A stretch of 64,000 bases of DNA from Streptomyces bikiniensis (lineage in GTDB: Bacteria > Actinomycetota > Actinomycetes > Streptomycetales > Streptomycetaceae), in the NCBI GenBank assembly GCA_000716465.1, contig JNWL01000011.1:62001-126000 (forward strand). The letters are read 5' to 3'. The number at the start of each line of letters is the position of its first letter. Within the stretch, counting starts at the first letter, position 1. The notes under the pieces are model-generated. The model did not search any database, was not told the origin of the DNA, and saw only the letters and a program-made list of their open reading frames with translations. This document shows positions 16,924 through 60,688 of this stretch, one piece after another. Both the position numbers and the translations under genes were made by a program.

Positions 16924-16953
16924 CTCCTCTACGGCTCCTCTACGGCTCCTCGG
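16924..16953. repeat. 11-bp tandem duplication across the stop codon of the TPR regulator gene
   Basis: Two perfect copies of CTCCTCTACGG (16924-16934, 16935-16945) plus a partial third. The second contains the CTA that is the TAG stop of the minus-strand gene; the first holds a second in-register TAG. Confidence 0.8.
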
Positions 16954-18691
16954 AGAGGGTGAACAGTCCCAGGCGCGCGCCCTCTTCGTGCGCCCGGCGC
17001 AGCCGCTCCCCGCCGAGCGCCTCGCGCAGGGCCCGCTCGCTGCGCTTCCGCGCCGTCGCGGTGGAGGCCGCCGGGCGGTACGCGTCGCCGAAGACGGAGG
17101 TCCGCAGCACGTCCACGGCGCCCAGGAGGTGGGCGGCGGCCACGGGCCGCCCGGTCGCGATCCGCAGCTCCGCGAGGAGTTCGGCCGCGCAGGACGCGCC
17201 CGCCGCCGAGCCGAGCGTCAGATGGCCGCGGAGCGCCCTCCGGGCGTGGTCGACGGCTCTCCCCCGCTCACCGTCCCAGGCGAGCAGCTCGGCACGCGCG
17301 TGGTGCGCCCAGGCGTCCGCCCACAGGTCGCGCCCCGCCCAGGCCCACCGCCCGGCCCGTTCGAGCGGCAGCCGGTCCAGGGCCTCCTGCGCCGCCTCCG
17401 GGTCGGTGCGGGCGAGGGCGAGGGCGAGCCCGGCCCAGGCCGTCTCGCGGCCGGGGCCGAAGTCCGGGGGCTCCTCCGTCAGGGCCAGCGCCTCCCGGAA
17501 CTCGGCCGCCGCCGCGCGCGTGCGCCCCTGGTACAGGGCGGTGGAGCCGCGCAGCTGGGCGAGCAGGCCCAGACAGCGGTCGTCGCCGTCCCGTACGGCC
17601 GCCGCCCAGGCCCGGACGAGGAGCGGGTCGGCGTCCTCGGGGCGGCCAGCCTCCAGTTCCAGATGGGCGGCGAGCCACAGGGCGCGGGCGGGCGGCGGCC
17701 CGGGGTGCAGGGCGAGGGCGTGCCGCAGCCGGGTCCGGCCCTCGGCGGCCCGCCCGCAGACCACCCACAGGAACCACAGGGAGACCGCGATCTCGACGCT
17801 CGTGCCGGCCTCGGCGCTCGGGGACAGCGGCGCGGTCGTGGGGTCCATGGCGGCGGCCAGGTCCGGGAGTTCCCGCAGGGCGAGGTCCCGGGCGTCGAGC
17901 TGCCGGCCGCTCTGCCACCGGTCGGCGGCTCGCCGGGCGAGCCGGGCGCACCACCTGCGGTGGTGCAGGACCACGGCCCGGCGGTCGCCGCGCTCGGTGA
18001 GCCTGCGGGCGCCCACCGCGCGCATGGGGAGCGGCATCCAGTAGCGGGGCGTGTCCTCCTCGCCGTCGAACAGGTCGTCCACGGGCAGGAGCGCGAGGGG
18101 GGCGAGCCGGTCGAGGACCGCCCGGACGCGGTTCGAGGGGAGCGTGCCGGAGGCGCAGACCTCGCGGACCGCGTCCCGGCAGAAGGCGCCCTCGAAGACG
18201 GACAGCCGCTCCCACAGGAGCCGTTCCTCCGGTCCGCAGCGGGCGTACCCGCCCTCGGCGGCGGCGAGCTGACCCGCGGTCACCGGTTCGCCCCACAGCA
18301 GCTCGGTCTCCGGACGGCCGGCTCCGACGCCGCCGGTGTCCCGGCCCCGGGCCCCTCCGCCCCGGGCGCCCCCGGCGGGACCGGTCCCTTCGACACTCCA
18401 GGCGTCCCCGGCGGGACCGGTCCCTTCGACACCCCAGGCGTCCCCGGCGGGACCGGCCCCCTCGGCACCCCGGGCACCCCGGGCGCTTCCGGTGCCCCCG
18501 ATGCTCACGACTCCCCTGATGTCCCCGGCACTTCCGGCGCACCCGGCGCCCCCCGCGTCCCCGACGTGTCCGGTGTCCCCGATACGTCCGATGCGCCGGA
18601 CGCGTCCGGTCGGGCCGGTGTCCGGTTCTCCGGCCGGCCCTCCGGCCGGACGTCCGGTCAGGCGTCCGTTCCCCCGCAGATGCCCCGTCAT
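16940..18691 (-). CDS. TPR-type regulator C-terminal half with Gly-rich N-terminus
   Basis: A 583-residue protein. From about residue 150 it matches the part of large LuxR/AfsR-like ATPase regulators that follows the NB-ARC domain: the winged-helix segment EERLLWERLSVFEGAF and a long helical TPR-like array ending LRRAHEEGARLGLF. The P-loop ATPase and any DNA-binding HTH are missing. In their place are ~130 Gly/Ala/Thr-rich residues, encoded partly by 36-bp tandem repeats. The ATG at 18691 follows AGGGAAGGG at good distance, so the repetitive N-terminus is probably translated. It may be a decayed or truncated regulator, or one reshaped into a protein-interaction module. Divergent from the AsnC regulator. 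Confidence 0.65.
   Translation of the reverse strand: MTGHLRGNGRLTGRPAGGPAGEPDTGPTGRVRRIGRIGDTGHVGDAGGAGCAGSAGDIRGVVSIGGTGSARGARGAEGAGPAGDAWGVEGTGPAGDAWSVEGTGPAGGARGGGARGRDTGGVGAGRPETELLWGEPVTAGQLAAAEGGYARCGPEERLLWERLSVFEGAFCRDAVREVCASGTLPSNRVRAVLDRLAPLALLPVDDLFDGEEDTPRYWMPLPMRAVGARRLTERGDRRAVVLHHRRWCARLARRAADRWQSGRQLDARDLALRELPDLAAAMDPTTAPLSPSAEAGTSVEIAVSLWFLWVVCGRAAEGRTRLRHALALHPGPPPARALWLAAHLELEAGRPEDADPLLVRAWAAAVRDGDDRCLGLLAQLRGSTALYQGRTRAAAAEFREALALTEEPPDFGPGRETAWAGLALALARTDPEAAQEALDRLPLERAGRWAWAGRDLWADAWAHHARAELLAWDGERGRAVDHARRALRGHLTLGSAAGASCAAELLAELRIATGRPVAAAHLLGAVDVLRTSVFGDAYRPAASTATARKRSERALREALGGERLRRAHEEGARLGLFTLSEEP
18374..18481. repeat. 36-bp tandem repeats in the Gly-rich region of the TPR regulator
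   Basis: Units 18374-18409 and 18410-18445 are almost identical, and 18446-18481 is a degenerate third. On the minus strand they encode the repeated Gly-Val-Glu-Gly-Thr-Gly-Pro-Ala-Gly segment. The antisense frame reads as a collagen-like Gly-Pro repeat, which I treat as coincidental. Confidence 0.75.
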
Positions 18692-18938
18692 CCCCACCCT
18701 TCCCTGCTCATTCCCTGTTCATTTCCGCTGCTCCCCGTTCCACCCCGCCTACGCGCGCGTGGACGGGGCTCCGGGTCGTCGTGCCCACGGGCCGTGCCCG
18801 CGCGCCGTGTTCGCGCGTTGTGCCCGACGTCATGGCGAAGGCCACCGCCACGGGATTGAATGCACGTGCCCAGGTGCACATCCTGGGGCGCCTCGGAACC
18901 CGGAGGCGGGGTTTGCCGGGGATCGGCCAAGGAGGCAC

Positions 18939-19973
18939 ATGGATACCGGGGAATCCGTCCTGGGAGAGGCGGATCTGGCACTGATCCACGCACTGCAGAT
19001 GGCTCCGCGCGCCACCTGGACCCAGCTCTCGGCCGTCCTGGAGACGAGCCCCGACACCCTCGCCCGGCGCTGGGAGCACCTCAACGGCAAGGGCTACGCC
19101 TGGAGTTCCCTGCTCGCCGCCCGGCACGGCAAGGAGTCCACCCTGTACGCGTGGGTGGAGCTGGAGTGCGCCGCCGGGGCCATCGAGACCACCGCGGGCG
19201 ACCTCTCGGAGGACCCCTGCACCCTCGGCGTCCACCAGGTGACCGGCGACGCCGACCTGGTGCTGCTCGTCGCCTCCCCGGACCTCTACGCCCTCGACGC
19301 CTACCTCGCCGACCGGGTGCGGCGCCTGCCCGGGGTGCTCAGGTGCCGCGCACAGGTCGTCACGCGGCTGCACAACCGCCCGTACCGGTCGCGGATCGAC
19401 CAGCTCACCCCCGGGCAGGTCCAGCTCCTCACGGAGCTGACGGGCGGGGAGCGGCGGAACCGGACCCACGCGCGCGCGTACCCGTACGTCACCGACCTGG
19501 ACCGGCGGATCGTCGCGGAGCTGGCGGGGGACGCGCGCCGCAGCGCCGCCGAGCTCGCCCGGCAGTGCGGCACGAGCGAGTCGACGGTGCGGCGCAGGCT
19601 GGACGTCCTGGCGGCGACCGGCGCGTTCCACCACCACTGCCTGCCCGCGCCGCGCTTCTCCGGGCGCCCGGTGTGGGCGCTGGTCACGGCGGACATCCCG
19701 CCCGTCGAGGTGTCGGAGTCGGTCGCCGCGCTCGGCCGGCTGCGCCAGACCCGGCTGGTCACCTCGGTCACCGGGCCGTACAACCTGGCGCTCGCGATGT
19801 GGCTCCGTACCGTCGACGAGCTGCACGAGGTGACGGCGGTGCTCGTACGGGCCGCGCCGGCGCTGCGGATCACCGGCACCTCGCTGTCGCTGCGCACGCA
19901 CAAGATCGGGGCGCAGGTGCTCGGCCCGGACGGACGCCGGACGCACCACGTGCGCCCGGAGCAGGGGGCCTGA
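18939..19973 (+). CDS. Lrp/AsnC family regulator with two HTH-RAM units
   Basis: A 344-residue protein containing two consecutive AsnC units. The first N-terminal HTH begins LGEADLALIHALQ, followed by a RAM-like ligand domain. A second HTH with TDLDRRIVAELAGDARRSAAE and ESTVRRRLDVL lies near residues 180-225, followed by a second RAM domain. This tandem form is common in Streptomyces, about twice the length of classical Lrp. Effectors of the family are amino acids. The ATG at 18939 has a strong AAGGAGG. It is divergent from the TPR regulator, so it may control that gene, but no operator was identified. Confidence 0.88.
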   Translation: MDTGESVLGEADLALIHALQMAPRATWTQLSAVLETSPDTLARRWEHLNGKGYAWSSLLAARHGKESTLYAWVELECAAGAIETTAGDLSEDPCTLGVHQVTGDADLVLLVASPDLYALDAYLADRVRRLPGVLRCRAQVVTRLHNRPYRSRIDQLTPGQVQLLTELTGGERRNRTHARAYPYVTDLDRRIVAELAGDARRSAAELARQCGTSESTVRRRLDVLAATGAFHHHCLPAPRFSGRPVWALVTADIPPVEVSESVAALGRLRQTRLVTSVTGPYNLALAMWLRTVDELHEVTAVLVRAAPALRITGTSLSLRTHKIGAQVLGPDGRRTHHVRPEQGA

Positions 19974-19977
19974 GGGT

Positions 19978-20767: not shown

Positions 20768-20825
20768 TCCACAGGCTGCGGAGCACGCGACCCGAATGTC
20801 CTTCGGCCGGAGCATGATGGGTGCC

Positions 20826-22688
20826 ATGACTGAGAGCGAGAAGCCCGAGAGCCACAGGACCCCCGAGAGCCACGCGAGCCCCGGCGCGCCCGTCTGGGAG
20901 CAGCGCTTCCGCGCGCCCCGCGTCTCCCTGCCGGAGTGGGCCGAGGAGGCACCGGACCGCTCGCTGTTCGTGTCCAACGCGACGGGGACGTACGAGCTGT
21001 ACGCGTGGGACCGGGCGACCGGGGAGCAGCGGCAGGTCACGAACCGGCCGAACGGGACGACGGACGGGACGCTGTCCCCGGACGGCGCGTGGGTCTGGTG
21101 GTTCGCGGACACCGACGGGGACGAGTTCGGGGTGTGGATGCGGCAGCCGTTCGCGGGCGGCGCGGACGAGTCGGCCGTGCCGGGCCTGGCTCCCTCCTAC
21201 CCGGCGGGGCTCGCGATCGGCCGGGAGGGCACGGTCGTGGTGGGCCGCTCCACGGACGAGGAGGGCTCGACGGTCCATCTCGTACGGCCCGGGGGCGGCG
21301 CCCCGGTGGAGGTCTACCGGCACCGGGAGTCGGCCGGGGTCGGGGACCTGTCGTACGACGGCTCGCTGATCGCGGTCGAGCACACCGAGCACGGGGACGC
21401 GATGCACTCGGCGCTGCGGGTCCTTCGCGCCTCGGACGGGAGCGCGGTCGCGGAGCTCGACGACACCAAGGGCGGCACGGAGGAGCTGGGCCTCACCGTC
21501 CTCGGCTTCGCCCCGGCCGCCGGGGACACCCGGCTGCTCGTCGGCCACCAGCGGCGCGGGCGCTGGGAGCCGATGCTGTGGGACGTGGCGACGGGCGCCG
21601 AGACCGATCTGCGGCTCGACCTGCCGGGCGACGTGTCGGCGGAGTGGTACCCGGACGGCTCGGGCCTGCTGATCGTGCACGGCTACGAGGCCCGCAGCGA
21701 GCTGTGGCGGTACGAGATCGCCACCGGCGCCCTGGTGCGGGTGGAGACCCCGGCCGGCTCGGTGTCGAGCGCGACGGCCCGGCCGGACGGCTCCGTGGAG
21801 TACCTGTGGTCCTCGGCCGCCGAGCCGCCGGTGGTGCGCTCCACGGACGGCGGGGTCGTCCTGGACCCGCCGGGCCCGAAGGCGCCGCCGTCGCTGCCGG
21901 TGGAGGACGTGTGGGTGGAGGGGCCCGGCGGCAGGGTCCACGCGCTCGTGCAGCGCCCGGCGGAGGGCGAGGGCCCGTTCCCGACGGTCTTCGAGGTGCA
22001 CGGCGGTCCGGCCTGGCACGACAGCGACGCCTTCGCGTCGGGCCCGGCGGCCTGGCTGGACCACGGGTACGCGGTGGTGCGGGTCAACTACCGGGGCTCG
22101 ACGGGGTACGGCCGGGAGTGGACGGACGCGCTGAAGCACCGGGTCGGCCTGATCGAGCTGGAGGACATCGGGGCGGTCCGGGAGTGGGCGGTGGCGAGCG
22201 GGCTCGCGGACCCGGAGCGGCTGGTCCTGTCCGGCGGCTCGTGGGGCGGCTACCTGACGCTCCTCGGCCTGGGCACGCAGCCGGACGCCTGGGCGGTCGG
22301 GCTCGCGGCGGTGCCGGTCGCGGACTACGTGACGGCGTACGAGGACGAGATGGAGGCCCTGAAGGCGCTGGACCGGACGCTCCTGGGCGGTTCGCCGGAG
22401 GAGGTGCCCGAGCGGTACGCGGCCTCGTCGCCGCTGACGTACGTGGACGCGGTGAAGGCGCCGGTGCACATCTCGGCCGGGGTGAACGACCCGCGCTGCC
22501 CGATCCGCCAGATCGACAACTACGTCGACCGGCTGGCGGCCCGGGGCGCGGTCCACGAGGTGTACCGGTACGACGCGGGGCACGGCTCCCTGGTGGTGGA
22601 GGAGCGGATCAGGCAGGTCGCCCTGGATCTGGCGTTCGCCGCGAAGCACCTGGGGACCCGGCCGGTCGAGTCGGGCCCCCGGCCCTGA
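20826..22688 (+). CDS. S9 family peptidase (prolyl oligopeptidase-like)
   Basis: A 620-residue serine peptidase. The N-terminal ~370 residues form a beta-propeller (blade-like WD/DG repeats such as LSPDGAWVWW). The alpha/beta-hydrolase domain starts around VFEVHGGPAWHD, with nucleophile elbow GGSWGGYL, catalytic Asp in NDPRCP and His in DAGHGSL. This layout fits acylaminoacyl-peptidase or dipeptidyl-peptidase-like S9 enzymes acting on short peptides. No signal peptide, so probably cytoplasmic. CATGAT ends 7 nt before the ATG at 20826, again suggesting little or no leader. Its 3' end is part of a 25-bp tandem repeat array. Confidence 0.9.
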   Translation: MTESEKPESHRTPESHASPGAPVWEQRFRAPRVSLPEWAEEAPDRSLFVSNATGTYELYAWDRATGEQRQVTNRPNGTTDGTLSPDGAWVWWFADTDGDEFGVWMRQPFAGGADESAVPGLAPSYPAGLAIGREGTVVVGRSTDEEGSTVHLVRPGGGAPVEVYRHRESAGVGDLSYDGSLIAVEHTEHGDAMHSALRVLRASDGSAVAELDDTKGGTEELGLTVLGFAPAAGDTRLLVGHQRRGRWEPMLWDVATGAETDLRLDLPGDVSAEWYPDGSGLLIVHGYEARSELWRYEIATGALVRVETPAGSVSSATARPDGSVEYLWSSAAEPPVVRSTDGGVVLDPPGPKAPPSLPVEDVWVEGPGGRVHALVQRPAEGEGPFPTVFEVHGGPAWHDSDAFASGPAAWLDHGYAVVRVNYRGSTGYGREWTDALKHRVGLIELEDIGAVREWAVASGLADPERLVLSGGSWGGYLTLLGLGTQPDAWAVGLAAVPVADYVTAYEDEMEALKALDRTLLGGSPEEVPERYAASSPLTYVDAVKAPVHISAGVNDPRCPIRQIDNYVDRLAARGAVHEVYRYDAGHGSLVVEERIRQVALDLAFAAKHLGTRPVESGPRP

Positions 22689-22900
22689 CCCGCCGGACGG
22701 GCCCGCTCGGGTGCCGGCCCCGACCCGCCGACCGGGTCCCGGCCTCGGCCCCCTGATCGGGTCCCGGCCTTGCCCCCCGCTCGGGTCCCGGCCTTGGCCT
22801 GCCCCGATCGGGTCCCGGCCTCGGTCCGCCGACCGGGTCCCGACCTCGGTCCGCCGCTCGGGTCCCGGCCTCGGCCCGCCGGTCGGGCCCGGTCGGGCAC
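22672..22900. repeat. 25-bp tandem array spanning the S9 peptidase stop codon
   Basis: The motif CGGGTCCCGGCCTCGG recurs with starts at 22708, 22733, 22758, 22782, 22809, 22834, 22859 and 22884 (spacing 24-27, mostly 25). A diverged first copy begins at 22672, inside the last codons of the peptidase gene, and contains its TGA (22686-22688). There are no unique spacers, so it is not CRISPR. It fills nearly all the space up to the SURF1 promoter. Confidence 0.85.
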
Positions 22901-22943: not shown

Positions 22944-23684
22944 GTGTACCGGTTCCTGAACACTCCCCGCTGGTGGGGGATCAACCTCTTCGTCCTCCTC
23001 GCGATCCCGTTCTGCGTCTTCATGGGGACCTGGCAGCTGGGCAAGTTCGAGGACCGCGTCGACTCCCACCAGGAGGCGGAGGAGCGGCCCGCCGCGAGCG
23101 CGGCGAAGGCCGAGCCGCTGGAGTCGCTGCTCCCGGTGGACAAGGAGACCTCGGGCCGCGCGGCCGAGGCGCGCGGCCGGTTCGGGGACCAGTTCCTCGT
23201 GCCGGGCCGCGAGCTGGACGGCCGGGCCGGGTCGTACGTCCTGACGCTGCTGCGGACGGACGGCGGCCGGTCCCTGCCGGTGGTCCGGGGCTGGCTCCCG
23301 GAGGGCGGGCGGGCGCCCGCCCCGCCGTCCGGCGAGGTCACGGTGGTGGGCGCGCTCCAGGCCTCGGAGAACCAGGGTTCGAAGGGCGTGAACGCGGCGG
23401 GCGGGCTGCCCGAGGGGCAGCTCGGCATGATCAGCGCGGCGTCCCTGGTGAACGTGGTGACGGACGACGTCTACGACGCCTGGATCACCCTCGCGGACTC
23501 CCCCGCCGGTCTCACGCCGGTCCCGGCGGCGGCCGCGGCGGGTACGGGTCTGGACGCGAAGGCGTTCCAGAACCTCGGCTACACGGCGGAGTGGTTCGTC
23601 TTCGCCGGCTTCGTGCTCTTCATGTGGTTCCGGCTCGTCCGCCGCGAGGCGGAGGCGTCCCGGGACGCGGCGCTGGGACTGTAG
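22944..23684 (+). CDS. SURF1 family protein (cytochrome oxidase assembly)
   Basis: A 246-residue membrane protein with the SURF1 layout. An N-terminal transmembrane helix (NLFVLLAIPFCVFMGTWQLG, with the family GTWQL motif), a soluble extracytoplasmic domain of ~170 residues, and a C-terminal helix (WFVFAGFVLFMWFRL). SURF1 proteins help insert heme a into the aa3-type oxidase. The GTG at 22944 puts the first helix close to the N-terminus as expected. It stands alone here, between a tandem repeat array and the convergent sigma-factor operon. Confidence 0.9.
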   Translation: MYRFLNTPRWWGINLFVLLAIPFCVFMGTWQLGKFEDRVDSHQEAEERPAASAAKAEPLESLLPVDKETSGRAAEARGRFGDQFLVPGRELDGRAGSYVLTLLRTDGGRSLPVVRGWLPEGGRAPAPPSGEVTVVGALQASENQGSKGVNAAGGLPEGQLGMISAASLVNVVTDDVYDAWITLADSPAGLTPVPAAAAAGTGLDAKAFQNLGYTAEWFVFAGFVLFMWFRLVRREAEASRDAALGL

Positions 23685-23724
23685 GTCCCGAAGTCCCGAG
23701 GTTCCGAGGTCCCGAGGTCCCGGG
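23685..23724. repeat. 8-bp tandem repeats directly after the SURF1 stop codon
   Basis: Five copies of GTCCCGAG-like octamers (23685, 23693, 23701, 23709, 23717) start at the first base after TAG. Confidence 0.75.
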
Positions 23725-28348: not shown

Positions 28349-28453
28349 GGTCGTCATACATCCAGGTCGTCATACATCCAGGTCGTCGTACGTCCGGATC
28401 ATGGCCACACGTCCGCGTCGTCGCCGTACGTCCGGGTCGTCGTCACACATCCA
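28349..28453. repeat. 16/19-bp tandem array spanning the recR stop codon
   Basis: Three 16-bp copies of GGTCGTCATACATCCA-like sequence (28349, 28365, 28381), then three 19-bp variants (28397, 28416, 28435). The last overlaps the final recR codons and contains its stop (TCA at 28443-28445); a TCA occurs at the same place in the first units. Confidence 0.85.
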
Positions 28454-29145: not shown

Positions 29146-29481
29146 TCAGAAGCCGAGGCCCGGCAGGCCGCCCATGCCCTGCGCCAGCGGGCCCAGCTTG
29201 GCCTGCTGGAGCTGCTGCGCGTTGTCGTTGGCGGCCTGCACGGCGGCGACGATCAGGTCGGCCAGGGTCTCGGTGTCCTCCGGGTCCACCGCCTTGGGGT
29301 CGATCACCAGGCCGCGCAGCTCGCCGGAGCCGGTCACGGTGGCCCTGACCAGGCCTCCGCCCGCCTGTCCGTCGACCTCCGTGGCCGCGAGCTCCTGCTG
29401 CGCCCGGGCGAGGTCCTGCTGCATCTTCTGGGCCTGCTGGAGGAGCTGCTGCATGTTGGGCTGGCCGCCACCGGGAATCAC
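29146..29481 (-). CDS. YbaB/EbfC family nucleoid-associated protein
   Basis: A 111-residue DNA-binding protein. It has a Gln-rich N-terminal helix ([20 protein letters not shown]) followed by the central beta-sheet ([17 protein letters not shown]), an acidic loop and the helix [15 protein letters not shown]. It forms a tweezer-like dimer in the family and sits upstream of recR, as in most bacteria. The GTG at 29481 follows AGGAG at 6 nt and gives the usual size; an earlier in-frame start would read through a 14-bp tandem repeat. Confidence 0.93.
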
Positions 29482-29493: not shown

Positions 29494-29535
29494 GGGTCGA
29501 TGTGCACGGGTCGATGTGCACGGGTCGATATGTCT
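29494..29535. repeat. 14-bp tandem repeat in the ybaB leader
   Basis: Two identical copies of GGGTCGATGTGCAC (29494, 29508) and a third diverged one (29522), just upstream of the ybaB ribosome binding site. Further upstream, TCACTC-TTTC-GAGTGA (29582-29597) is a small palindrome that could be an operator. Confidence 0.75.
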
Positions 29536-31245: not shown

Positions 31246-31381
31246 GGGAGGCTCGCTCTCCGTCAGTTGCAGGGACGGCCAGGGTAGTCGGATCGTCCGA
31301 CGACGCCCACCCGCTGAGGACCTGCCCCCGGAGCCGCCCCCTCAACCCGCCGGGCCCCGCCCGGGACGACGGCCGGACCCC

Positions 31382-31550
31382 GCCGCCCGGGAACCGCCCC
31401 GCCGGCTCAGGCCCTGTCCCGCCACCCGGGAACCGCCCCGCCGGCTCGGGCCCCGCCCCGCCGCCCGGAACCGCCCCGGCGCTCAGGCCCCGCCCCGCCG
31501 CTCGGGCCCCGCCCCGCCGCTCGGGCTCCGCCCCGGTGCTCAGGCCCGCC
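31382..31550. repeat. 39/19-bp tandem array spanning the GntR gene stop codon
   Basis: Units of about 39 bp at 31382, 31421 and 31460, then 19-bp units at 31497 and 31516, and a partial unit reaching the gene. GCTCAGGCCC occurs in several units and in the last contains the stop codon (TCA at 31540-31542). All GC-rich; no gene in it. Confidence 0.75.
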
Positions 31551-32247
31551 GCTCCAGGTCCTCCAGCCGGTCCGCCCACTCCAGCGCGTGCGCGTTGTAG
31601 GCCCGTACGACCGCCACGGCCGCCTCCGCGTCGCCGCGGGTGACCGCGTCGACCAGGTCCACGTGCCCGCTCCACAGCCACCCCAGGAGGTCCCGTTCGG
31701 AGCGCAGGTGGGGGACGGAGAAGACCCAGGCCTGGACGCGGAGCCGGTGCAGGAAGTCCGCGAGGTGGTCGTTGGCGGCGATCAGGCGCCCCAGCTCGTG
31801 CCAGTAGCGGATGTCGTACCCGATGAGGACGTCCAGGTCCCCGGCGCGGGCCGCGCGCGCGGCGGCCTCGCCCCGGCGGCGCAAGGAGACGAGCGCGACC
31901 CCCATGCCGGGCTCGGGGCCCCGGGGCGGGCACGGGAGGGCGGTGGCGCGGCGCCGGAAGATGCCGTCCACGACGAGCATCCGGGCCTCGACCATGCGCC
32001 GGTAGTCGTCCACGGAGTACTGGTGGACGCGGAAGCCGCGGTGCTGGTCGGAGTCGAGGAGGCCCTGCGCGCAGAGGTCCACGAGGGCTTCGCGCACGGG
32101 CGTGGCCGAGACGCCGTACTGCTCCGCGATCTGCTTGACGGTGAACTCCCGCCCGGCCTTGAGACGGCCCGCGAGCACCTCGTCACGGAGCGCGTCCGCG
32201 ATCTGCCGACTGAGGGTGCTGCGGGTGACGGCTCCGCTCGCGGGCAT
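31540..32247 (-). CDS. GntR family regulator, FadR/FCD subfamily
   Basis: A 235-residue regulator. The winged HTH near the N-terminus reads IADALRDEVLAGRLKAG and QIAEQYGVSATPVREAL, followed by the wing HRGFRVHQYS. The C-terminal ~150 residues are the all-helical FCD ligand domain, with metal-binding histidines plausible in YDIRYWHELGRLI and GHVDLVDAVTRGD. Ligands of FCD regulators are small carboxylates. It lies just downstream of the class III aminotransferase on the same strand and may control it. Confidence 0.9.
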   Translation of the reverse strand: MPASGAVTRSTLSRQIADALRDEVLAGRLKAGREFTVKQIAEQYGVSATPVREALVDLCAQGLLDSDQHRGFRVHQYSVDDYRRMVEARMLVVDGIFRRRATALPCPPRGPEPGMGVALVSLRRRGEAAARAARAGDLDVLIGYDIRYWHELGRLIAANDHLADFLHRLRVQAWVFSVPHLRSERDLLGWLWSGHVDLVDAVTRGDAEAAVAVVRAYNAHALEWADRLEDLERRA

Positions 32248-39760: not shown

Positions 39761-39787
39761 GGGGCACTCCTGTACCGCTCGTGTACT

Positions 39788-39871
39788 GCTCGCTCGCTCG
39801 CTCGCTTGCCTGCTTGCTTGCCTGCTCGCTCGCTTGCCTGCTCGCTTGCCTGCCTGCTCGCCTGCTCGCTC
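39788..39871. repeat. Tetranucleotide microsatellite, 21 units of GCYY
   Basis: Uninterrupted GCTC/GCTT/GCCT units from 39788 to 39871, directly upstream of the oxidoreductase ribosome binding site. Unit length four means that a change in copy number would shift any frame crossing it. Confidence 0.9.
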
Positions 39872-40048
39872 GCGGACTGCTCGTACGGAAGCCCCCTCGT
39901 GGCCATTACACAGAGGCTCCCCACCCCCGGCAACTGCTGATGACCCGCCCGCGCGACACCCCGGGAACGCGGCCGGAATCCGGCTTGCGGAAGGGAGAAC
40001 TCCAGGTGACGGGTGGCGAAGCCCCCCACGGAACCGCACACACGTCCG

Positions 40049-40061: not shown

Positions 40062-41618
40062 ATGGACTGGCTCACCTCCGAGAACCTCGTCGCCGTCGTC
40101 ACCGCACTCATCGGCGTCCTGGTCTCGATCGGCGTCGCCTGGTACCAGTGGTGGGTGCTGCGCCAGCGGCGGATCGGCTACCGCATCCAGCTGGACACGG
40201 CCGTCGGCGGCGGGACGAACGGTGCCGATGCCGGCACCGGCACCGGCACCGGCGCGGCCGTGCGGCGCGGTTACTTCAACGCCAGCCCCGGCCTGGAGGA
40301 CGCCACCCTCGTCCTGCTCAGGATCGAGAACGACGGGGCCCTGTCCGTCACCCGCGAGCACTACACGGACGGGGACGACCACGGGCTGACGGTGGAGTTC
40401 GAGGGGCGGCACGTGAAGGCGGTCGTCGTCACCGCCCCCGACCACCCCCGCCTCCTCAGCCACTTCCCCGAGTCCTGGACGGGCCCCGCGGAGGGCGCCA
40501 CCAGCATCGCCCTGCCGAAGGTCCCGCTCAACCGGGGCGCCTACTACAAGCTGCTCGTCCTGCTCGCCGGCGGCCCGATCGGCGGCGCGGTCACGGTCGA
40601 CGGCAGCATCACCGAGGGCCGCGTCCACCCCACCCGCAGCCTCACCCCCGACGACAAGCCGCCCGTCTTCAGCCGGGCCGCGCTGTCCGTCACGGTCCTC
40701 CTCACCGCGTGCGTCGTCGCCCTCGCCGCGATCATCGTCCGGGAGGAGGCCCCGCCGCCGATCGGCTGCGCCCGGGGCACCCTCACGGTCAGCGGCTCGA
40801 CGGCCTTCGCGCCCGTCGCACGGCAGCTCGCGAAGGAGTACGAGAAGGACTGCGCGGGTGCGAAGGTGACCGTGGACGCGCACGGCTCGGCCACCGGCGT
40901 CCGGGAACTGGACGCCGCCGGGAGGAAGGCCGCCGCGGCGAAGGAGGCACCGCCCGCCGTCGTCGCGCTCTCCGACGGGCGCAAGCCGAACGGCCACCCG
41001 GAGCTGCGGGAGACCCCGGTCGCCGTCTCCCTCTTCACCCTCGTCGTGCACGACGGGGTACCCGTCGCCAACCTGAGCCGGGCGCAGATCCGGGGCGTCT
41101 ACCGGGGCGACATCACCAACTGGAGCGCGCTCGGCGGCCCGAACCTGCCGATCCGGCTGGTGAGCCGGAACGCCGGCTCCGGCACCCGGGAGGTCTTCCA
41201 GCGCCGGGTCCTCGGGGAGAACGAACCGGCCCACTCCTCCCTCGACTGCGAGCACCGCGACGACCCCCGGGCGAAGGTGACCCGCTGCGAACTCGACTCC
41301 ACCGAACAGGTCCTGGACACCGTCGCCCGGCTCCCCGGGGCCGTCGGCTACGGCGAACTGCGCGCGAGCGGCACCGTGAAGGGCCTGCACCGGGTGGCGA
41401 TCGACGGCCGCGACGCCGACGTCGACGAGCTGGGCGCGTCCGACTACCCGTACCGGGAGATCGAGTACGCCTACACCTGGGGCGAGCCGCCGACCGGCTC
41501 CCTGACGGCCGGCTTCCTCGCCTACCTCACCCGGGGCGCCGGCCAGGACCTCGTCCGCCTCCACGGCCACCTGCCCTGCGCCACCCCGAAGGGGCTGCGG
41601 GTCTGCGGGGACGGGTGA
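40062..41618 (+). CDS. Membrane-tethered phosphate-binding-like (PstS-type) protein
   Basis: A 518-residue protein with an unusual layout. An N-terminal helix (LVAVVTALIGVLVSIGVAWY) is followed by a ~170-residue soluble domain (NASPGLEDATLVLLRIEN, a beta-rich module) and a second helix (ALSVTVLLTACVVALAAII). A periplasmic-binding-protein domain follows, with TVSGSTAFAPVARQLAKEY, RGDITNWSALGG and SRNAGSGTREVFQRRV, the hallmarks of PstS-like phosphate binding. Unlike real PstS it is not a lipoprotein and has no pst transport genes beside it. It is followed, 95 bp later, by a receptor-type Ser/Thr kinase, suggesting a sensing pair. Confidence 0.82.
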   Translation: MDWLTSENLVAVVTALIGVLVSIGVAWYQWWVLRQRRIGYRIQLDTAVGGGTNGADAGTGTGTGAAVRRGYFNASPGLEDATLVLLRIENDGALSVTREHYTDGDDHGLTVEFEGRHVKAVVVTAPDHPRLLSHFPESWTGPAEGATSIALPKVPLNRGAYYKLLVLLAGGPIGGAVTVDGSITEGRVHPTRSLTPDDKPPVFSRAALSVTVLLTACVVALAAIIVREEAPPPIGCARGTLTVSGSTAFAPVARQLAKEYEKDCAGAKVTVDAHGSATGVRELDAAGRKAAAAKEAPPAVVALSDGRKPNGHPELRETPVAVSLFTLVVHDGVPVANLSRAQIRGVYRGDITNWSALGGPNLPIRLVSRNAGSGTREVFQRRVLGENEPAHSSLDCEHRDDPRAKVTRCELDSTEQVLDTVARLPGAVGYGELRASGTVKGLHRVAIDGRDADVDELGASDYPYREIEYAYTWGEPPTGSLTAGFLAYLTRGAGQDLVRLHGHLPCATPKGLRVCGDG

Positions 41619-41713: not shown

Positions 41714-43738
41714 GTGGAGCCATTGAACGCGGAGGACCCGGAGCGCATCGGCCCGTTCCGACTGATCGGCCGCCTCGGGGTCGGGGGGATGGGCCGGGTC
41801 TTCCTGGCGCGCTCGGCCGGGGGCCGGACGGTCGCCGTGAAGGTGGTGCACGCGGAACTGGCCTCCCAGGACGAGTTCCGGCGCCGGTTCGCCCGCGAGG
41901 TCGCCGCCCTGGAGCGGGTCGGCGGCACGGGCACGGCCCCCGTCCTCGGCTCGGACACCGGCGCCGAGGCCCCCTGGGTCGCCGTCGGGTACGTGCCGGG
42001 GCCCTCGCTGCGGGCGGTGGTGGGCGACGCGCACGGGCCGCTGCCGACGGAGACCGTACGGACCCTGGCGGCCGGGCTCGCCCGCGCCCTCGGCCATATC
42101 CACGCCGCCGGGCTCGTCCACCGCGACCTCAAGCCCTCGAACGTCCTGCTGACCGTCGACGAGCCGCAGCTCATCGACTTCGGCATCGCCCGCGCCCTCG
42201 ACACGGTCGCCGAGGGCGGCAACCTCACCACCACCGGGGCCGTCGTCGGCTCCCCCGGCTTCATGTCGCCCGAGCAGGTGCGCGGCGAGCGCCTGACGCC
42301 CGCGTCGGACGTCTTCTGCCTGGGCTCGGTCCTGGTGTACGCGGCGACCGGGCGCGCGCCCTTCGGCACGGCGGACAGCGGCGTCCACGCCACGATGTTC
42401 CGCATCGCCCACGACGAGCCCGACCTGACGGGCCTGCCGCCCGAGCTCACCGGCCTGATCCGGGCCTGCCTCGCCAAGGACCCGGCGGCCCGCCCCGCGA
42501 CGGACGAGCTGGTCGGGACGCTCCCGGTCGCCGACCCCTGGCTCCCGGCGGACGTCCTGGCCCGCCTGGGCCGACACGCGGCGCGACTGCTGGAGGCGGA
42601 GGCGGGGACGGGGACGGGGGTGGCCCCCGGGGCCGAGGGCACTGGCCATACGGTCTCCGGGGGCTCCGGTCGTACGGCCTCCGGGGGCTCCGGCCGTACG
42701 GTCTCCGGGGGCTCCGGCCGTACGGTCTCCGGGGGCACCGGTCGTACGGCCTCCGGGGACACCGGCCGTACGGCCTCCGGGGAGCCGACCGGCGCCCCCG
42801 CCCCCGCTCCCGCCCACCCGACCGGGTCCACCGTCGCCCCGTCCCGCCCCCGGCGCCGCCGGGCCCTGCTCGCCGGCCTCACGACCCTCGCGGTGGCGGC
42901 CGCGGCCACCGCCGCGTACACCTTCTGGCCGGGCCCGGCCACCGGTACCGACGGGAAGGGCGAGCGGGGAACGGGCGGGACGGCCGCCCCCGCCCCCGCC
43001 GGGATCGTCCCGGCCGCCTTCCTCGGCGCCTGGGAGGGCGTGCTCCAGGGCGGCGAGGACCACCCCAGGGAGACCGTCCGCATCGAGATCACGCAGGGCC
43101 CGGCCGGCGCCAAGAACGCCGTCTACACCCAGGTGTCCGAGAACCGCCTGTGCATGGGACGCTCGCGGCTCGTCTCGGCCGACGAGGACGAGGTCGTGTA
43201 CGGCGAGTCCGACGTGACGACCAGCGTGCCCGCCGCCCGCTGCACCCCGGCCGCCCACCAGACCCTCGCCCTGCGCTCCCCCGACGTCCTGGAGTGGACC
43301 TCGGGCGCCGCGAGGGCCACCTTCCGCAAGGCCCCCACCGGCACGTCCGTCGTCCCCGCCCGCTTCCTCGGGGAGTGGCAGAACGTCCCCCGGCCGGAGG
43401 TCTACGGCGACCAGGACGGGCGGTACGGCACGTGGGTGACGGTCACGCAGGGGCCGGTCGGGACGCGGGTCGTCCGGTTCCGGGACGTCTTCCCGCGCCT
43501 GGACGAGGAGGGCGCGCCCACCCCCGAGACGGTCTCCTGCGGCTCCACCGCCGTCCTCGGCGGCTCCGGGAACCTGCTGGTCGTCGGCCCGCAGGTGCGG
43601 GACCAGGGCGCCTGGGACCCCGAGTGCGCGGAGAACGGCTCCAGCTACCTCCAGGTCGTGCGGGGGAAGGGCGAGGACCGGCTCCTGGTGTACCCGATGG
43701 TCGACGCGGAGCCGGGCGAGTACCGGCGGCGTTCCTAG
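41714..43738 (+). CDS. Receptor-type Ser/Thr protein kinase with repeat linker
   Basis: A 674-residue kinase. The kinase domain (about residues 13-270) has GRLGVGGMGRVF, VAVKVVHA, LVHRDLKPSN and LIDFGIARA, and an activation segment with LTTTGAVVGSPGFMSPEQ. A Ser/Gly/Arg-Thr linker made of an 8-residue tandem repeat leads to one membrane helix (ALLAGLTTLAVAAAATAAYTF). Outside are two similar beta-rich domains (PAAFLGAWEGVLQ and PARFLGEWQNVP) that look like an internal duplication of a lipocalin-like fold. The GTG at 41714 lies 8 nt after CATGCT. Likely a signalling partner of the preceding phosphate-binding-like protein. Confidence 0.92.
   Translation: MEPLNAEDPERIGPFRLIGRLGVGGMGRVFLARSAGGRTVAVKVVHAELASQDEFRRRFAREVAALERVGGTGTAPVLGSDTGAEAPWVAVGYVPGPSLRAVVGDAHGPLPTETVRTLAAGLARALGHIHAAGLVHRDLKPSNVLLTVDEPQLIDFGIARALDTVAEGGNLTTTGAVVGSPGFMSPEQVRGERLTPASDVFCLGSVLVYAATGRAPFGTADSGVHATMFRIAHDEPDLTGLPPELTGLIRACLAKDPAARPATDELVGTLPVADPWLPADVLARLGRHAARLLEAEAGTGTGVAPGAEGTGHTVSGGSGRTASGGSGRTVSGGSGRTVSGGTGRTASGDTGRTASGEPTGAPAPAPAHPTGSTVAPSRPRRRRALLAGLTTLAVAAAATAAYTFWPGPATGTDGKGERGTGGTAAPAPAGIVPAAFLGAWEGVLQGGEDHPRETVRIEITQGPAGAKNAVYTQVSENRLCMGRSRLVSADEDEVVYGESDVTTSVPAARCTPAAHQTLALRSPDVLEWTSGAARATFRKAPTGTSVVPARFLGEWQNVPRPEVYGDQDGRYGTWVTVTQGPVGTRVVRFRDVFPRLDEEGAPTPETVSCGSTAVLGGSGNLLVVGPQVRDQGAWDPECAENGSSYLQVVRGKGEDRLLVYPMVDAEPGEYRRRS
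42651..42782 (+). repeat. 24-bp in-frame tandem repeat in the kinase linker
   Basis: Units at 42651, 42675, 42699, 42723 and 42747 plus a half unit to 42782. They encode repeated T-V/A-S-G-G-S-G-R octapeptides between the kinase domain and the membrane helix. Confidence 0.85.
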
Positions 43739-45265: not shown

Positions 45266-46048
45266 GTGTCGGATCACGACCAGCTGCTGGTCATCGTCGA
45301 CCCGGTCGCCCGCCGAAGCGACGGCGAGTCCGTACGGATCGCGAAGGATGTCCTGTCCGCCGGCGCGAAGGCGAAGATCTGCCTGCCGGACGGCCCGGAG
45401 GAATTCTCCCGGGCCCTGGCCCGGCGCGGCTCCCGGCGCCCCGTGCTGCTCGGGGACGACCGGGCCCTGCTGCGCGCGGTGACCCTGCTGCACCGCGAGC
45501 GGGACCTCGCGGAGGGGGCCCTCGCCCTGGTTCCGATCGGCGCGCCGGAGGCCCTGGAGGTCGCGCACGCGCTCGGCGTGCCGTCCTCCACCCCGGCGGC
45601 GGCGCGGGCGGCCCTGGAGGGGGCGGTGCGCCGCCTGGACCTCCTGGTGGACGACAGCGACGGCGTCGTCCTCGGGGACCTGCTGGTCCCGGCCGTCCCG
45701 GTCCCGGCCCCGGCGGCCCCGTCGGTCTGGGGCACCTGCCGTTCCCTGGTCCGCACCCTGGTCCCCCCGGCGGTCCGCACGCACCCCCTGCGGGTGGAGG
45801 CGGACGGCGTCCTGCTCGCGGACGTGGACGCCCCGCTGGAGGCCCTGACGGCCCGCTCGGTCGCCGGCGCGGCCGAGGTGACCGTCCGTCCCCCCGCCGC
45901 CCCGCCCCGCCGCACCACCGCCCGCACCCTCACCGTCTCGGGCCCGGACTTCCGCTACCGCGCGGACGGCCGCCTGACGGGCCCGGTGCGGAGACGGACG
46001 TGGACGGTGCGGGAGGGGGCGTGGGGGTTGCGGCTGCCGAGGGGGTGA
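45266..46048 (+). CDS. Diacylglycerol kinase-like catalytic domain protein
   Basis: A 260-residue protein resembling the DAGK/sphingosine-kinase fold: an N-terminal LLVIVDPVARRSDGESVR, an ALVPIGAPEALEVAHALG stretch in the position of the GGGDGT/NDFAR-type region, and a beta-rich C-terminal half. The strict GGDGT motif is not visible, so catalytic activity is uncertain. The GTG at 45266 follows GGAAGGA; an upstream in-frame ATG at 45233 lies in the hairpin region. Its stop codon sits in the first unit of a 42-bp tandem duplication. Confidence 0.75.
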   Translation: MSDHDQLLVIVDPVARRSDGESVRIAKDVLSAGAKAKICLPDGPEEFSRALARRGSRRPVLLGDDRALLRAVTLLHRERDLAEGALALVPIGAPEALEVAHALGVPSSTPAAARAALEGAVRRLDLLVDDSDGVVLGDLLVPAVPVPAPAAPSVWGTCRSLVRTLVPPAVRTHPLRVEADGVLLADVDAPLEALTARSVAGAAEVTVRPPAAPPRRTTARTLTVSGPDFRYRADGRLTGPVRRRTWTVREGAWGLRLPRG

Positions 46049-46104
46049 CGTCGGGGAGGGGTGTGGGGGCGCGGCTGCCGGAGGTGTGACGTCGGGGAGG
46101 AGGT
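46021..46104. repeat. 42-bp tandem duplication spanning the stop codon of the DAG-kinase-like gene
   Basis: Units 46021-46062 and 46063-46104 share GTGGGGG, CGGCTGCCG and TGACGTCGGGGAGG. The TGA stop (46046-46048) is in the first unit and a TGA recurs at the same place in the second. Confidence 0.8.
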
Positions 46105-46181
46105 GACGTTGCCGGGGGCGCGCAGGGAATCCCGTACGGGGAGCGGATAGCGTCCTGGAAGGGGACACCACGGGGGCCGTG

Positions 46182-54634: not shown

Positions 54635-54864
54635 GACAGACTTCTCCCCTGCTTCGGCCGGTGTGGGGGAAGAGGGAGTGGGGCCTCGGTACCGGCGTTC
54701 GTCGGTGCTGCGGTTCCGGGGATCGTACCGATCCCTTTCGAACAGACCCGAAAATCGCGGGGGCGGTTCCGAAAAGGCGCAGGGATTCGAAAGGCGTCGG
54801 GTTCGAAAAGGCGTCGGGGCGGCGGCCGTTCGAAGACCACCGCCCCGGGGATCCGCCGGTGCGA
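54635..54864. other. Non-coding stretch upstream of the DUF3152 gene
   Basis: No gene seen. It contains repeated TTCGAAAAGGCG-like sequences (around 54765-54835), several of which carry the TTCGAA palindrome, and then passes into the 16-bp repeat array. It probably includes the DUF3152 promoter. Confidence 0.5.
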
Positions 54865-54944
54865 GGGACCGCCCCTGCCAGGGACCGCCTGTGTCAGGGA
54901 CCGCCCATGTCAGGGACCGCCCCTGCCAGGGACCGCGCGTGTCA
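54865..54944. repeat. 16-bp tandem array ending in the DUF3151 stop codon
   Basis: Five units starting at 54865, 54881, 54897, 54913 and 54929 (consensus GGGACCGCCCCTGYCA). The last three bases of the fifth unit are the stop codon (TCA, 54942-54944), and a TCA or CCA ends the other units. Confidence 0.88.
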
Positions 54945-55355: not shown

Positions 55356-55479
55356 GGGCCCAGTCTGCCTCAGCGGCACGGCCCCGGTCCGCCCCGCCCG
55401 GGGCACGACGAGGCCCCGCCCGCCGAATCCGAGGAGACGGGGGACGGGGCCGCGGTGCGACGGGGCCGGCGGAGCCGAC

Positions 55480-55547
55480 GGGTCAACGGGTCAACGGGTC
55501 AACGGGTCAACGGGTCAACGGGTCAACGGGTCAACGGGTCAACGGGT
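55480..55547. repeat. Octanucleotide array GGGTCAAC x8 spanning a stop codon
   Basis: Eight perfect copies from 55480 to 55543 plus a partial GGGT. The stop (TCA at 55539-55541) of the beta-propeller gene is inside the last full copy, and the last codons read into the array. Confidence 0.9.
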
Positions 55548-57557
55548 GATGTTGAAGTACTTCCATCCGCCGTAGACCGTGGTGTTCACGTTGTCGCCGG
55601 ACAGTCCGTCCACGTACGCCGTACGGACCCGGGCGCGGACGCCCTCCGCTCCGGCGCCGTCGAACAGGATGTACGCCATGCCGTTGTTGTTCAGCCGGAC
55701 GTAGCCCTCGGAGCCCGCGTACCAGGCGCCCGCGTACCAGACCTGGAGCTCGTACTTGGTCTGGCGGCCCGGGAACGAGTTGTGCCACGCGGAGACCAGC
55801 ACGTCGGCGCTCTGGTGGTACGTCTGGTACGAGGTGGAGCCGATCTTCGTCCACTTGTAGTGCCGGGACAGCGTGGTGCTGACGCCGGCCCGGGTGTACA
55901 CGGTGGACCCGGTGTGGGCGCTGCCGGAACGGGTGTCACCCGCGAAGGACGCGGTCACCCGGGTGTCGCGGGTCATGTTGAGCGTCACCGACAGCTTGCC
56001 CGCCGAGTTGACCGTGCCGCGCTTGAGCAGCCGCTTCGGGTCGGGGCCGTACGGGTCGGCCCAGATCTCCACCACGCGGTTGCGGTGCGTCCAGCCGAGG
56101 TACGCCGTGTACGTCACCGTGGTGTTGTGGTTGACGGTGCGGTTGTGCTGGTCGAGGAGCAGCGTGGACTTGAACGGGGTCACATTGACGACCGCCGAGC
56201 CGCTCGCGCCCGAGTGCGTGGCGTCGCCCGCGTACGCGACCTTGTACGTGACGTTGCCCGCCGCGTACGGGGTCTCGGTGAAGGAGAACGTGCCGTTCGC
56301 CCCGAGCGCCCTCGTCCCGAGCACCGTGCCCTTGGGGTACTCGGCGTCGTACCGCGTCACGGTGAGCGGCGTGCCGGCCGGCAGCGGCAGGGTCGACGCG
56401 ACCGTGCCGGAGACGGTGATCGGCTTGAGGACCGCCACGGTGGCCGGGACCTTCACGGTGACCACCGGCGCGGACAGGGTGGGCGTGTCCAGGACCTGCA
56501 GGCGGGCGTTGCCGCCGCTGGCCGTGGTCACCGCGAACAGGCGCTTGCCGCCCGGCTCCCAGCCGAGGGCGCTGTGGCCGAGGCCGTCCCCGCCGCTGCT
56601 GTTGCCGGTGCTCGGGAAGTCGTACTGGCGCACGGCCTTCGTCTCGCCCGGCCGGTAGACGAACACGTCCGGGGCGTACGCGGCGTCGGACCCCGCCGCC
56701 ACGGTGCCGTCGGCGGCGACGGCCACGGCGGCGCCGTGGTAATCGCTGGCGTAGGAGGGCAGTTCGGCCATGTCGGAGGCCCGCCACACCCGGTGGCGGT
56801 TGCCGGCGGTGGCCGTGATGATCTTGTCGCCGTCCGGGGTGAAGGCGAGGTCGTTGGCCATGCCCACCGAACCGACGCTCGCGGGGACGCGCGCGGTACG
56901 GGTCGCGGTGCCCGTGGACGCGTCGTACGTGCCGAGTTCGAACCGGTGGTAGTACGAGGACATCGCCGCGAAGACGTTCGGGTCCGCCGGCGAGGCGACG
57001 AGCCTCGGGGCGCCCGAGTAGTTCGCCTCGGCGTCCTGGGCCAGGGTCACCACGGGCTCGGCGCCGGAGGTGTCGACCGACCCGATGTCGCCGTGGTGCC
57101 CGTCGCCGTAGCCGAACCAGATCCTGCCGCCCGCGTGGGCGACGTACTGCGGGTCGGTGCCCTCGCCGGTGGCGTACCGGGCCTGCTCGGTCACGGTCCC
57201 CGCGTCGAGGACGACGACGGCGTCGGCGCCCGGGACGGCGGCGTAGAGGCTCCCCGAGTCGGGGGAGAGCGCGAGCCCGGTGACCCCGGGCAGGCCGGTG
57301 ACGGTGCTCAGCACCGTGCCGGCGTAGTCGGTCGCGACGACCTTCCCGAGGTAGGGGTCGCTGATGAAGATCTTCCGGTGGACACCGTCCACCACCATGT
57401 CGCCCACGGACGACATCGGAAGGACCCGGCTGCTGTCGGCAGCCGCCGGGCCCGCCGTCACCGCGACCAGCGCCGCGGAACCGACGAGAACCGCGAACGA
57501 GGTCGCGGCGGAGAGAGCGCGCTTGCGCACGATGAAGAGACCCCCCAAAAAAACCAT
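55539..57557 (-). CDS. Secreted beta-propeller and Ig-like domain protein
   Basis: A 672-residue exported protein. A signal peptide (FAVLVGSAALVAVTAGPAAA) is followed by a YVTN-type beta-propeller of about 330 residues (blades such as VTGLALSPDSGSLYAA and ANDLAFTPDGDKIITAT), then Ig-like beta-sandwich repeats (VTVKVPATVAVLKPITVSGT, FSFTETPYAAGNVTYKVAYAG) and a C-terminal aromatic beta domain ending YGGWKYFNITR. No catalytic motif is seen; it is probably an adhesive or binding wall protein. The start is unusual: ATG is followed at once by T7 and G6 runs. A GTG nine codons downstream, after the G run, is an alternative start. Confidence 0.82.
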   Translation of the reverse strand: MVFLGGLFIVRKRALSAATSFAVLVGSAALVAVTAGPAAADSSRVLPMSSVGDMVVDGVHRKIFISDPYLGKVVATDYAGTVLSTVTGLPGVTGLALSPDSGSLYAAVPGADAVVVLDAGTVTEQARYATGEGTDPQYVAHAGGRIWFGYGDGHHGDIGSVDTSGAEPVVTLAQDAEANYSGAPRLVASPADPNVFAAMSSYYHRFELGTYDASTGTATRTARVPASVGSVGMANDLAFTPDGDKIITATAGNRHRVWRASDMAELPSYASDYHGAAVAVAADGTVAAGSDAAYAPDVFVYRPGETKAVRQYDFPSTGNSSGGDGLGHSALGWEPGGKRLFAVTTASGGNARLQVLDTPTLSAPVVTVKVPATVAVLKPITVSGTVASTLPLPAGTPLTVTRYDAEYPKGTVLGTRALGANGTFSFTETPYAAGNVTYKVAYAGDATHSGASGSAVVNVTPFKSTLLLDQHNRTVNHNTTVTYTAYLGWTHRNRVVEIWADPYGPDPKRLLKRGTVNSAGKLSVTLNMTRDTRVTASFAGDTRSGSAHTGSTVYTRAGVSTTLSRHYKWTKIGSTSYQTYHQSADVLVSAWHNSFPGRQTKYELQVWYAGAWYAGSEGYVRLNNNGMAYILFDGAGAEGVRARVRTAYVDGLSGDNVNTTVYGGWKYFNITR

Positions 57558-57734
57558 GGTCTCCGGCCCTCAGAGCGGGGCACGGTGCACGAAGACTAGA
57601 GCACGCGTGCGACACGCCACCTCCCGGTATCCCCCCGCCCCGTGCACGGGACCGGAGCCGGGGCCGGGTGCCCCTCCGCGTACGGGACCGGGGCCGCCCC
57701 CGTCCACCGGCGGAGGGCCTCCACACGCGCCCGG

Positions 57735-58895: not shown

Positions 58896-58923
58896 CAGGC
58901 CCTCTCGCCCTTCCCGTCGGCAC

Positions 58924-58968
58924 GCGAAGGGCCCGCCACCCCGGGAAGCGGGGTGCCGGGCCCTTCGC
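58924..58968 (-). terminator. Terminator after fba
   Basis: A 20-position stem with one C-C mismatch (58924-58943 with 58949-58968) and a GGAAG loop, 12 bp past the fba stop. Confidence 0.85.
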
Positions 58969-58979
58969 CCTGCACGTGC

Positions 58980-60643: not shown

Positions 60644-60650
60644 GGTCACG

Positions 60651-60656
60651 AGCTTA
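60651..60656 (-). promoter_or_regulatory. -10 element of pyrE, leaderless spacing
   Basis: TAAGCT on the minus strand, 7 nt before the ATG at 60643. Confidence 0.45.
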
Positions 60657-60657
60657 A

Positions 60658-60688
60658 GGGGCCCGCCGGCTCAGGGGCCCGCCGGTCA
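60658..60688. repeat. 15/16-bp tandem duplication at the epimerase stop codon
   Basis: GGGGCCCGCCGGCTCA (60658-60673) and GGGGCCCGCCGGTCA (60674-60688). The second ends in the stop codon of the epimerase gene (TCA, 60686-60688). Confidence 0.75.

What the first reader, a model, noticed from the sequence alone, without database searches (positions are those of the whole stretch)
16924..60688. Recurrent tandem repeats anchored on stop codons
At least nine unrelated genes carry a short tandem array at their 3' end. In eight the stop codon lies within a repeat unit: TPR regulator (11 bp), S9 peptidase (25 bp), recR (16/19 bp), GntR gene (39/19 bp), DAG-kinase-like gene (42 bp), DUF3151 (16 bp), beta-propeller (8 bp) and epimerase (15/16 bp). 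SURF1 has 8-bp repeats starting right after TAG. Unit sequences differ, so this is not one spreading element. Repeated position at the stop suggests a process acting there, such as slippage during repair or replication conflicts, or 3'-UTR function such as transcript end formation.
Basis: partly seen in the sequence, partly recalled or inferred. Interest (0 to 1): 0.75.

Follow-up and report, generated by a model that had tools for sequence, protein, structure and literature searches.

The report
Silent repeat arrays at gene ends
In Streptomyces, about one in six gene ends that are followed by a gap carries a small home-grown stack of repeated DNA starting at or just after the stop codon, most likely because duplications there leave the protein untouched and so survive and pile up.

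Summary
In 1.26 Mb of this genome, 107 of 602 stops followed by at least 60 bp of intergenic DNA carry an array, against 35 of 750 starts. Two sets of loci from Streptomyces and near kin agree: 38/246 and 140/868 stops, 9/290 and 41/970 starts. Array edges concentrate from -15 to +45 of the stop (about 4-6/kb, against about 1/kb beyond 90 nt). Complete genomes show it too.

The stop triplet is not an anchor. Its place within the unit is uniform, units are unrelated, and arrays are lineage-specific, with array-free relatives.

Best explanation: short tandem duplications arise widely. Those that include or follow the stop leave the protein unchanged and lie in the indel-tolerant stretch before the terminator or next promoter, so they persist and expand. 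Coding arrays keep units divisible by three (678/739); stop-spanning ones do not (39/106).

A stop-linked mutational hotspot is not excluded: arrays rise about 4-fold toward the stop, other indels about 2-fold. A terminator role, fail-safe stops and a mobile family are not supported.

The parts
16924..16951 (-). 11-bp array (x2.5) across the TAG stop (16940-16942) of the TPR-like gene 16940-18283(-)
   Evidence: TRF; sequence
22703..22892 (+). 25-bp array (x7.6) beginning 14 nt after the TGA stop (22686-22688) of the S9 peptidase gene 20817-22688(+); a degenerate first copy reaches over the stop by eye
   Evidence: TRF; sequence; 2 of 19 recR-region orthologs have another array
23683..23722 (+). 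8-bp array (x5) starting inside the TAG stop (23682-23684) of the SURF1 gene 22944-23684(+)
   Evidence: TRF; 4 of 19 orthologs have another array
28349..28442 (-). 16/19-bp arrays between the recR stop (28443-28445) and the next gene (start 28312)
   Evidence: TRF; 0 of 20 orthologs have an array; G014 shows the array-free state
31378..31547 (-). 19/39-bp array across the TGA stop (31540-31542) of the GntR-type gene 31540-32247(-)
   Evidence: TRF; 3 of 19 orthologs have another array
46011..46105 (+). 41-42-bp array (x2.2) across the TGA stop (46046-46048) of the lipid-kinase-like gene 45266-46048(+)
   Evidence: TRF; 2 of 11 orthologs have another array
54848..54936 (-). 16-bp array (x5.5) between the DUF3151 stop (54942-54944) and a downstream hairpin; imperfect first copy contains the stop by eye
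   Evidence: TRF; 7 of 80 orthologs have another array; L089 and L093 array-free
55478..55547 (-). 8-bp array (x8.8, 100% match) across the TGA stop (55539-55541) of gene 55539-57557(-)
   Evidence: TRF; L107 shows the array-free state, 3 of 6 orthologs have another array
60657..60693 (-). 16-bp duplication (x2.4) across the TGA stop (60686-60688) of the aldose-epimerase gene 60686-61471(-)
   Evidence: TRF; L093 has a single copy; 4 of 72 orthologs have another array

Best explanation
The arrays are ordinary minisatellites born by local tandem duplication (slippage or template switching between short chance repeats) and filtered by selection. A duplication whose first copy contains the stop, or that lies after it, leaves the protein unchanged: the ribosome stops at the original stop in copy 1 and later copies are untranslated, some of them with fossil stops. 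The DNA between the stop and the terminator hairpin or next promoter also tolerates indels best. Duplications persist and expand there; inside genes they are removed unless divisible by three, and beside starts they are removed. Shown: position bias, first-copy placement, mod-3 contrast, array-free relatives, lineage specificity, raised indel rate beside stops. Inferred: slippage as the molecular step, and neutrality of the arrays.
For: Stops 107/602 against starts 35/750, repeated in two relative sets. Edge density 4-6/kb from -15 to +45, about 1/kb beyond 90 nt (strict TRF 3.69 against 0.64/kb). Stop in the first copy in 102 of 106 stop-spanning arrays within 3 nt and in 65 of 67 with periods not divisible by three, 29.2 expected from random phase. 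Periods divisible by three: 678/739 coding, 39/106 stop-spanning. Stop position within the unit uniform (KS p=0.33, n=82). Array-free relatives for recR, DUF3151, epimerase, beta-propeller, SURF1 and lipid-kinase genes with nearly unchanged C-termini. Indels of 3-120 bp outside arrays 26, 19, 15, 11 per kb at 0-15, 15-30, 30-60, 60-90 nt after stops, 3-11 within 60 nt of starts.
Against: Array density rises about 4-fold toward the stop but other indels only about 2-fold and substitutions about 1.2-fold; a nonlinear response of repeated events was not modelled. Intergenic arrays also have an excess of periods divisible by three (266/484) and start-overlapping ones 25/30, which points to missed genes or wrong starts in my calls. 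In convergent regions stop contact is as expected by random placement. For periods divisible by three the first-copy rule is automatic. Only 44 of 106 second copies keep the same stop triplet. C-termini of S9, GntR and TPR differ between relatives.
Confidence: 0.68

Rival explanations
1. Mutational hotspot: past the stop, transcribed but ribosome-free DNA (R-loops, paused polymerase, terminator hairpins, conflicts with replication) duplicates more often.
For: Peak within about 50 bp of the stop in own genome and relatives; array excess about twice that of other indels.
Against: No strand skew (mean -0.006, n=212, against -0.012, n=873); stop position uniform in the unit; other indels and substitutions are raised too, as relaxed constraint predicts.
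Confidence: 0.2
2. 3'-UTR function: arrays shape transcript ends, termination or mRNA stability and are kept by selection.
For: Position between stop and hairpin in DUF3151 and beta-propeller genes; a VNTR between rnc and fpg1 in M. tuberculosis correlates with fpg1 expression (PMC2734929, passages).
Against: Units and presence are not conserved among orthologs; stems of >=8 bp follow arrays in 15/155 and array-free stops in 105/707 tandem regions, 4/24 and 31/166 in convergent ones; in a fixed 200-nt window 27/212 against 231/873, a comparison shortened by the array itself.
Confidence: 0.07
3. Fail-safe stops: arrays are kept because they repeat the stop codon.
For: 44 of 106 second copies repeat the same stop triplet, 49 any stop.
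Against: In-frame extra stop within 15 codons in 11.2% of 107 array stops and 10.3% of 495 others, p=0.73; most stop-spanning periods are not divisible by three (67/106).
Confidence: 0.02
4. Artefact of assembly, gene calling or the repeat finder.
For: Draft of 163 contigs; home-made gene calls.
Against: Few-contig genomes 20/187, drafts 24/185; annotated complete Streptomyces plasmid 7/43 stops, caller recovers 41/43 annotated stops; strict TRF 84/602 against 28/750.
Confidence: 0.03

Closest known systems
Bacterial VNTR minisatellites, e.g. ETR-F/VNTR3239 between rnc and fpg1 of M. tuberculosis (PMC2734929, passages seen)
   Same: Short intergenic tandem arrays after an upstream gene, lineage-variable
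   Different: Here many unrelated arrays, placed by a genome-wide stop-side bias
TAACTGA direct repeats of marine Beggiatoaceae (PMC4679880, passages seen)
   Same: Tandem repeats, some overlapping stops, limited by the stops in them
   Different: One shared 7-bp unit, mostly facing start codons; here units are unrelated and stop-side
Tandem repeats of Borg elements (PMC9879509, passages seen)
   Same: Fast-evolving; units in ORFs divisible by three; about half intergenic or with the first unit in gene ends
   Different: Archaeal elements, perfect A-enriched units; no stop-side statistic in the passages seen
Constant-size tandem repeats of Bacillus and others (PMC8161180, passages seen)
   Same: Constant mechanism with variable sequence
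   Different: Units of 20-21 or 52 nt there; broad 6-98 nt here

Membership tests
Minisatellite (VNTR-like) tandem array | Head-to-tail copies of a 6-100 bp unit | tested here: met
   TRF; periods 8-42 at the nine sites
Minisatellite (VNTR-like) tandem array | Copy number varies between strains of one species | not tested
   Only one genome per species was held; between species arrays come and go
Dispersed element (MIRU, REP/BIME, MITE type) | Shared sequence between copies at different sites | tested here: not met
   3 of 107 stop arrays share sequence with another, 5 of 107 after shuffling
Constant-size bacterial tandem repeats | Unit of 20-21 or 52 nt | tested here: not met
   Non-coding periods spread from 6 to 98 nt
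Intrinsic terminator | Stem-loop inside the feature | tested here: not met
   Perfect stem of >=8 bp inside 11 of 212 stop arrays
Intrinsic terminator | Transcript 3' ends map to it | not testable with these tools
   No Term-seq of this strain

The most novel reading that the evidence does not exclude
The first ~50 bp after stop codons is a true duplication hotspot in Streptomyces and some other Actinomycetes: ribosome release exposes nascent RNA and template while polymerase slows toward the terminator, provoking template-switch duplications, so translation termination leaves a mutational footprint in the genome.
Probability: 0.2. Interest if true: 0.75.

Novelty: new variant of a known kind. 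Interest (0 to 1): 0.48.

Why it matters
If right, a simple rule predicts where bacterial minisatellites can live: a duplication that includes the stop is invisible to the protein. It explains how 3' UTRs of high-GC bacteria lengthen and turn over, offers strain markers at gene ends, and warns against reading such arrays as regulatory. The roughly 2-fold excess over other indels makes a stop-linked mutation bias directly testable.

Tried and rejected
Rejected: one dispersed family; fail-safe stops; terminator replacement; R-loop or Rho-like composition (no skew); assembly artefact; 'arrays lie only where intergenic space is'. Led nowhere: scoring tandem-duplication indels directly in pairwise alignments (almost none recognised because alignments split them); convergent pairs for the constraint test (7 usable regions). 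G113 and G189 (about 67% GC, poor gene calls) were left out but are. Counts include arrays lying in neighbouring genes; one search is cleaner. NucS loss did not considerably change the indel rate in a Streptomyces (PMC11109965, passages), so mismatch repair was not pursued.

Full report
WHERE. The window is contig 11, 62001-126000, of a 7.39-Mb draft genome, 73% GC. The best DUF3151 matches among named records are Streptomyces (e.g. Streptomyces sp. NRRL F-6492, 98%). I fetched 1.264 Mb of the same genome including the window and called 1059 genes with a home-made Markov gene caller. On 50 kb of an annotated, complete Streptomyces plasmid it recovers 41 of 43 annotated stops.

THE NINE ARRAYS. 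Five run across the whole stop, SURF1 begins inside its TAG, recR is flush, DUF3151 and S9 begin 5 and 14 nt after it with imperfect first copies that reach over the stop by eye. A mechanical scan gives 11 of 57 window genes, of which two are repeats inside a neighbouring gene.

GENOME-WIDE. At TRF score >=50, 47 arrays overlap a stop, 7 a start and 2 both; three shuffles average 0.7, 1.7 and 0.7. Among gene ends with at least 60 bp of adjoining intergenic DNA, 107/602 stops and 35/750 starts carry an array (odds ratio 4.4, p=5e-15); for 20 same-genus recR loci 38/246 and 9/290; for 80 named DUF3151 loci (mostly Streptomyces, a few Actinacidiphila, one Kitasatospora) 140/868 and 41/970. Stricter TRF settings give 84/602 and 28/750, laxer ones 196/602 and 138/750. 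In tandem intergenics 33 of 109 arrays touch the stop end (14.9 expected by random placement, reached in none of 500 placements) and 3 the start end (15.2 expected); in convergent regions contacts equal expectation (17 of 42 arrays, 16.5 expected); in divergent ones starts are avoided (1 of 39, 5.9 expected).

SHAPE OF THE PEAK. In 340 tandem intergenics of at least 250 bp (pooled 3.17 Mb, 2853 genes) the density of stop-proximal array edges is 4.0, 6.0, 4.5 and 3.8 per kb in the bins -15..0, 0..15, 15..30 and 30..45, then 2.0 and 1.6, and 0.9-1.1 beyond 90 nt; upstream of divergent starts it is 0.4-1.4. Own genome and relatives show the peak separately; in 102 convergent regions of at least 120 bp it is 4.6 and 5.3 in the first two bins and falls more slowly. 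So the excess is more than available space, and it is a zone, not a point: within stop-spanning arrays the place of the stop in the unit is uniform (KS p=0.33, n=82 with a place between 0 and 1; 17 lay below, 7 at or above 1).

HOW THEY ARISE. Relatives show the array-free state. In G014 recR ends at a TGA followed by 35 nt to the next gene's ATG; the distal copies in the window still read like that ancestral end, and the gap is 130 nt here. L093 has one copy of the 16-bp unit at the epimerase stop where the window has two; L107 has a single CCCGC-TGA-CCCGT where the window has about eight copies of TGACCCGT; L089 and L093 pass almost straight from the DUF3151 stop to the hairpin. C-termini are nearly unchanged for recR, DUF3151, epimerase, beta-propeller, SURF1 and lipid-kinase genes, but differ for S9, GntR and TPR. 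Arrays are lineage-specific: at score >=45, 0/20 recR, 2/19 S9, 4/19 SURF1, 3/19 GntR and 1/1 TPR orthologs, and 7/80 DUF3151, 4/72 epimerase, 2/11 lipid-kinase and 3/6 beta-propeller orthologs carry arrays, mostly with other periods.

WHY THERE. Two filters are visible. Reading frame: 678 of 739 coding arrays have periods divisible by three against 39 of 106 stop-spanning ones; the stop lies in copy 1 in 102 of 106 within 3 nt, and in 65 of 67 with periods not divisible by three, 29.2 expected from random phase. For periods divisible by three the rule is automatic and proves nothing. Against a clean picture, intergenic arrays also favour multiples of three (266/484) and start-overlapping ones strongly so (25/30), which suggests missed genes and wrong starts in my calls. 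Tolerance: between close species (82 pairs of 69 loci, not independent) indels of 3-120 bp outside arrays run at 26, 19, 15 and 11 per kb at 0-15, 15-30, 30-60 and 60-90 nt after stops and at 10.6 and 14.3 farther out; upstream of starts at 3-11 within 60 nt. Substitutions are 0.134-0.140 in the first 30 nt after stops and 0.108-0.119 from 60 to 250 nt. In S. clavuligerus the commonest 3' UTR length is 70-79 nt (PMC8269248, passages), so the zone lies within the usual 3' UTR.

WHAT REMAINS. Array density rises about 4-fold toward the stop, other indels about 2-fold. Arrays need repeated events, so a nonlinear response is plausible, but I did not model it. A mutational contribution tied to ribosome release or polymerase pausing is open. 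It has no composition signature: sense-strand GC skew averages -0.006 in arrays (n=212) and -0.012 in array-free ends (n=873).

OTHER READINGS TESTED. Fail-safe stops: 11.2% of 107 against 10.3% of 495 with an in-frame extra stop, p=0.73. Terminator role: stems of at least 8 bp follow arrays in 15/155 and array-free stops in 105/707 tandem regions, 4/24 and 31/166 in convergent ones. Spreading element: 3/107 arrays share sequence with another, 5/107 after shuffling, 8/107 array-free flanks. Assembly: few-contig genomes 20/187, drafts 24/185; complete annotated plasmid 7/43 stops and 2/43 starts.

TAXONOMIC REACH. In 18 other Actinomycetes genomes (38 stretches) 25/306 stops and 14/400 starts carry arrays (p=0.008), fewer than in the Streptomyces-type relatives (178/1114, p=0.0004); families f41 (10/53) and f49 (6/38) come close to the Streptomyces rate, f46 (1/44) and f45 (1/36) do not. 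The first 20 genomes alone gave 13/173 and 9/215, not significant. In 150 kb of E. coli K-12, 1 of 126 gene ends has one.

LITERATURE. Eight searches aimed at this pattern (listings of 10-30 papers each, lists capped) showed no paper on stop-side clustering of unrelated arrays in Streptomyces; subscription papers are not held. Related work seen as passages: PMC2734929, PMC4679880, PMC9879509, PMC8161180.

Noticed in passing
window 29494-29529: A perfect 14-bp array (x2.6) 12 nt upstream of the start of gene 29146-29481(-), an exception to the avoidance of starts.
   Followed up: no
window 39786-39873: A GCTC-rich 16/28-bp array in the divergent region between genes 38819-39760(-) and 40062-41618(+).
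   Followed up: no
window 18360-18482: A 36-bp array (x3.4) just upstream of the called start of the TPR gene; it may belong to a longer N-terminus.
   Followed up: no
window 5506-5697, 42633-42782, 61949-62050: Long arrays inside genes with periods divisible by three (33, 24 and 36 bp), as coding repeats.
   Followed up: partly
L192, 27609 (fadA, E. coli K-12): A 98-bp x2.9 array touching the stop, the only one in 126 E. coli genes; perhaps a REP/BIME cluster (recalled, not tested).
   Followed up: no
families f41 and f49: Two unnamed Actinomycetes families show array rates at stops near the Streptomyces level (10/53, 6/38) while others are low.
   Followed up: partly
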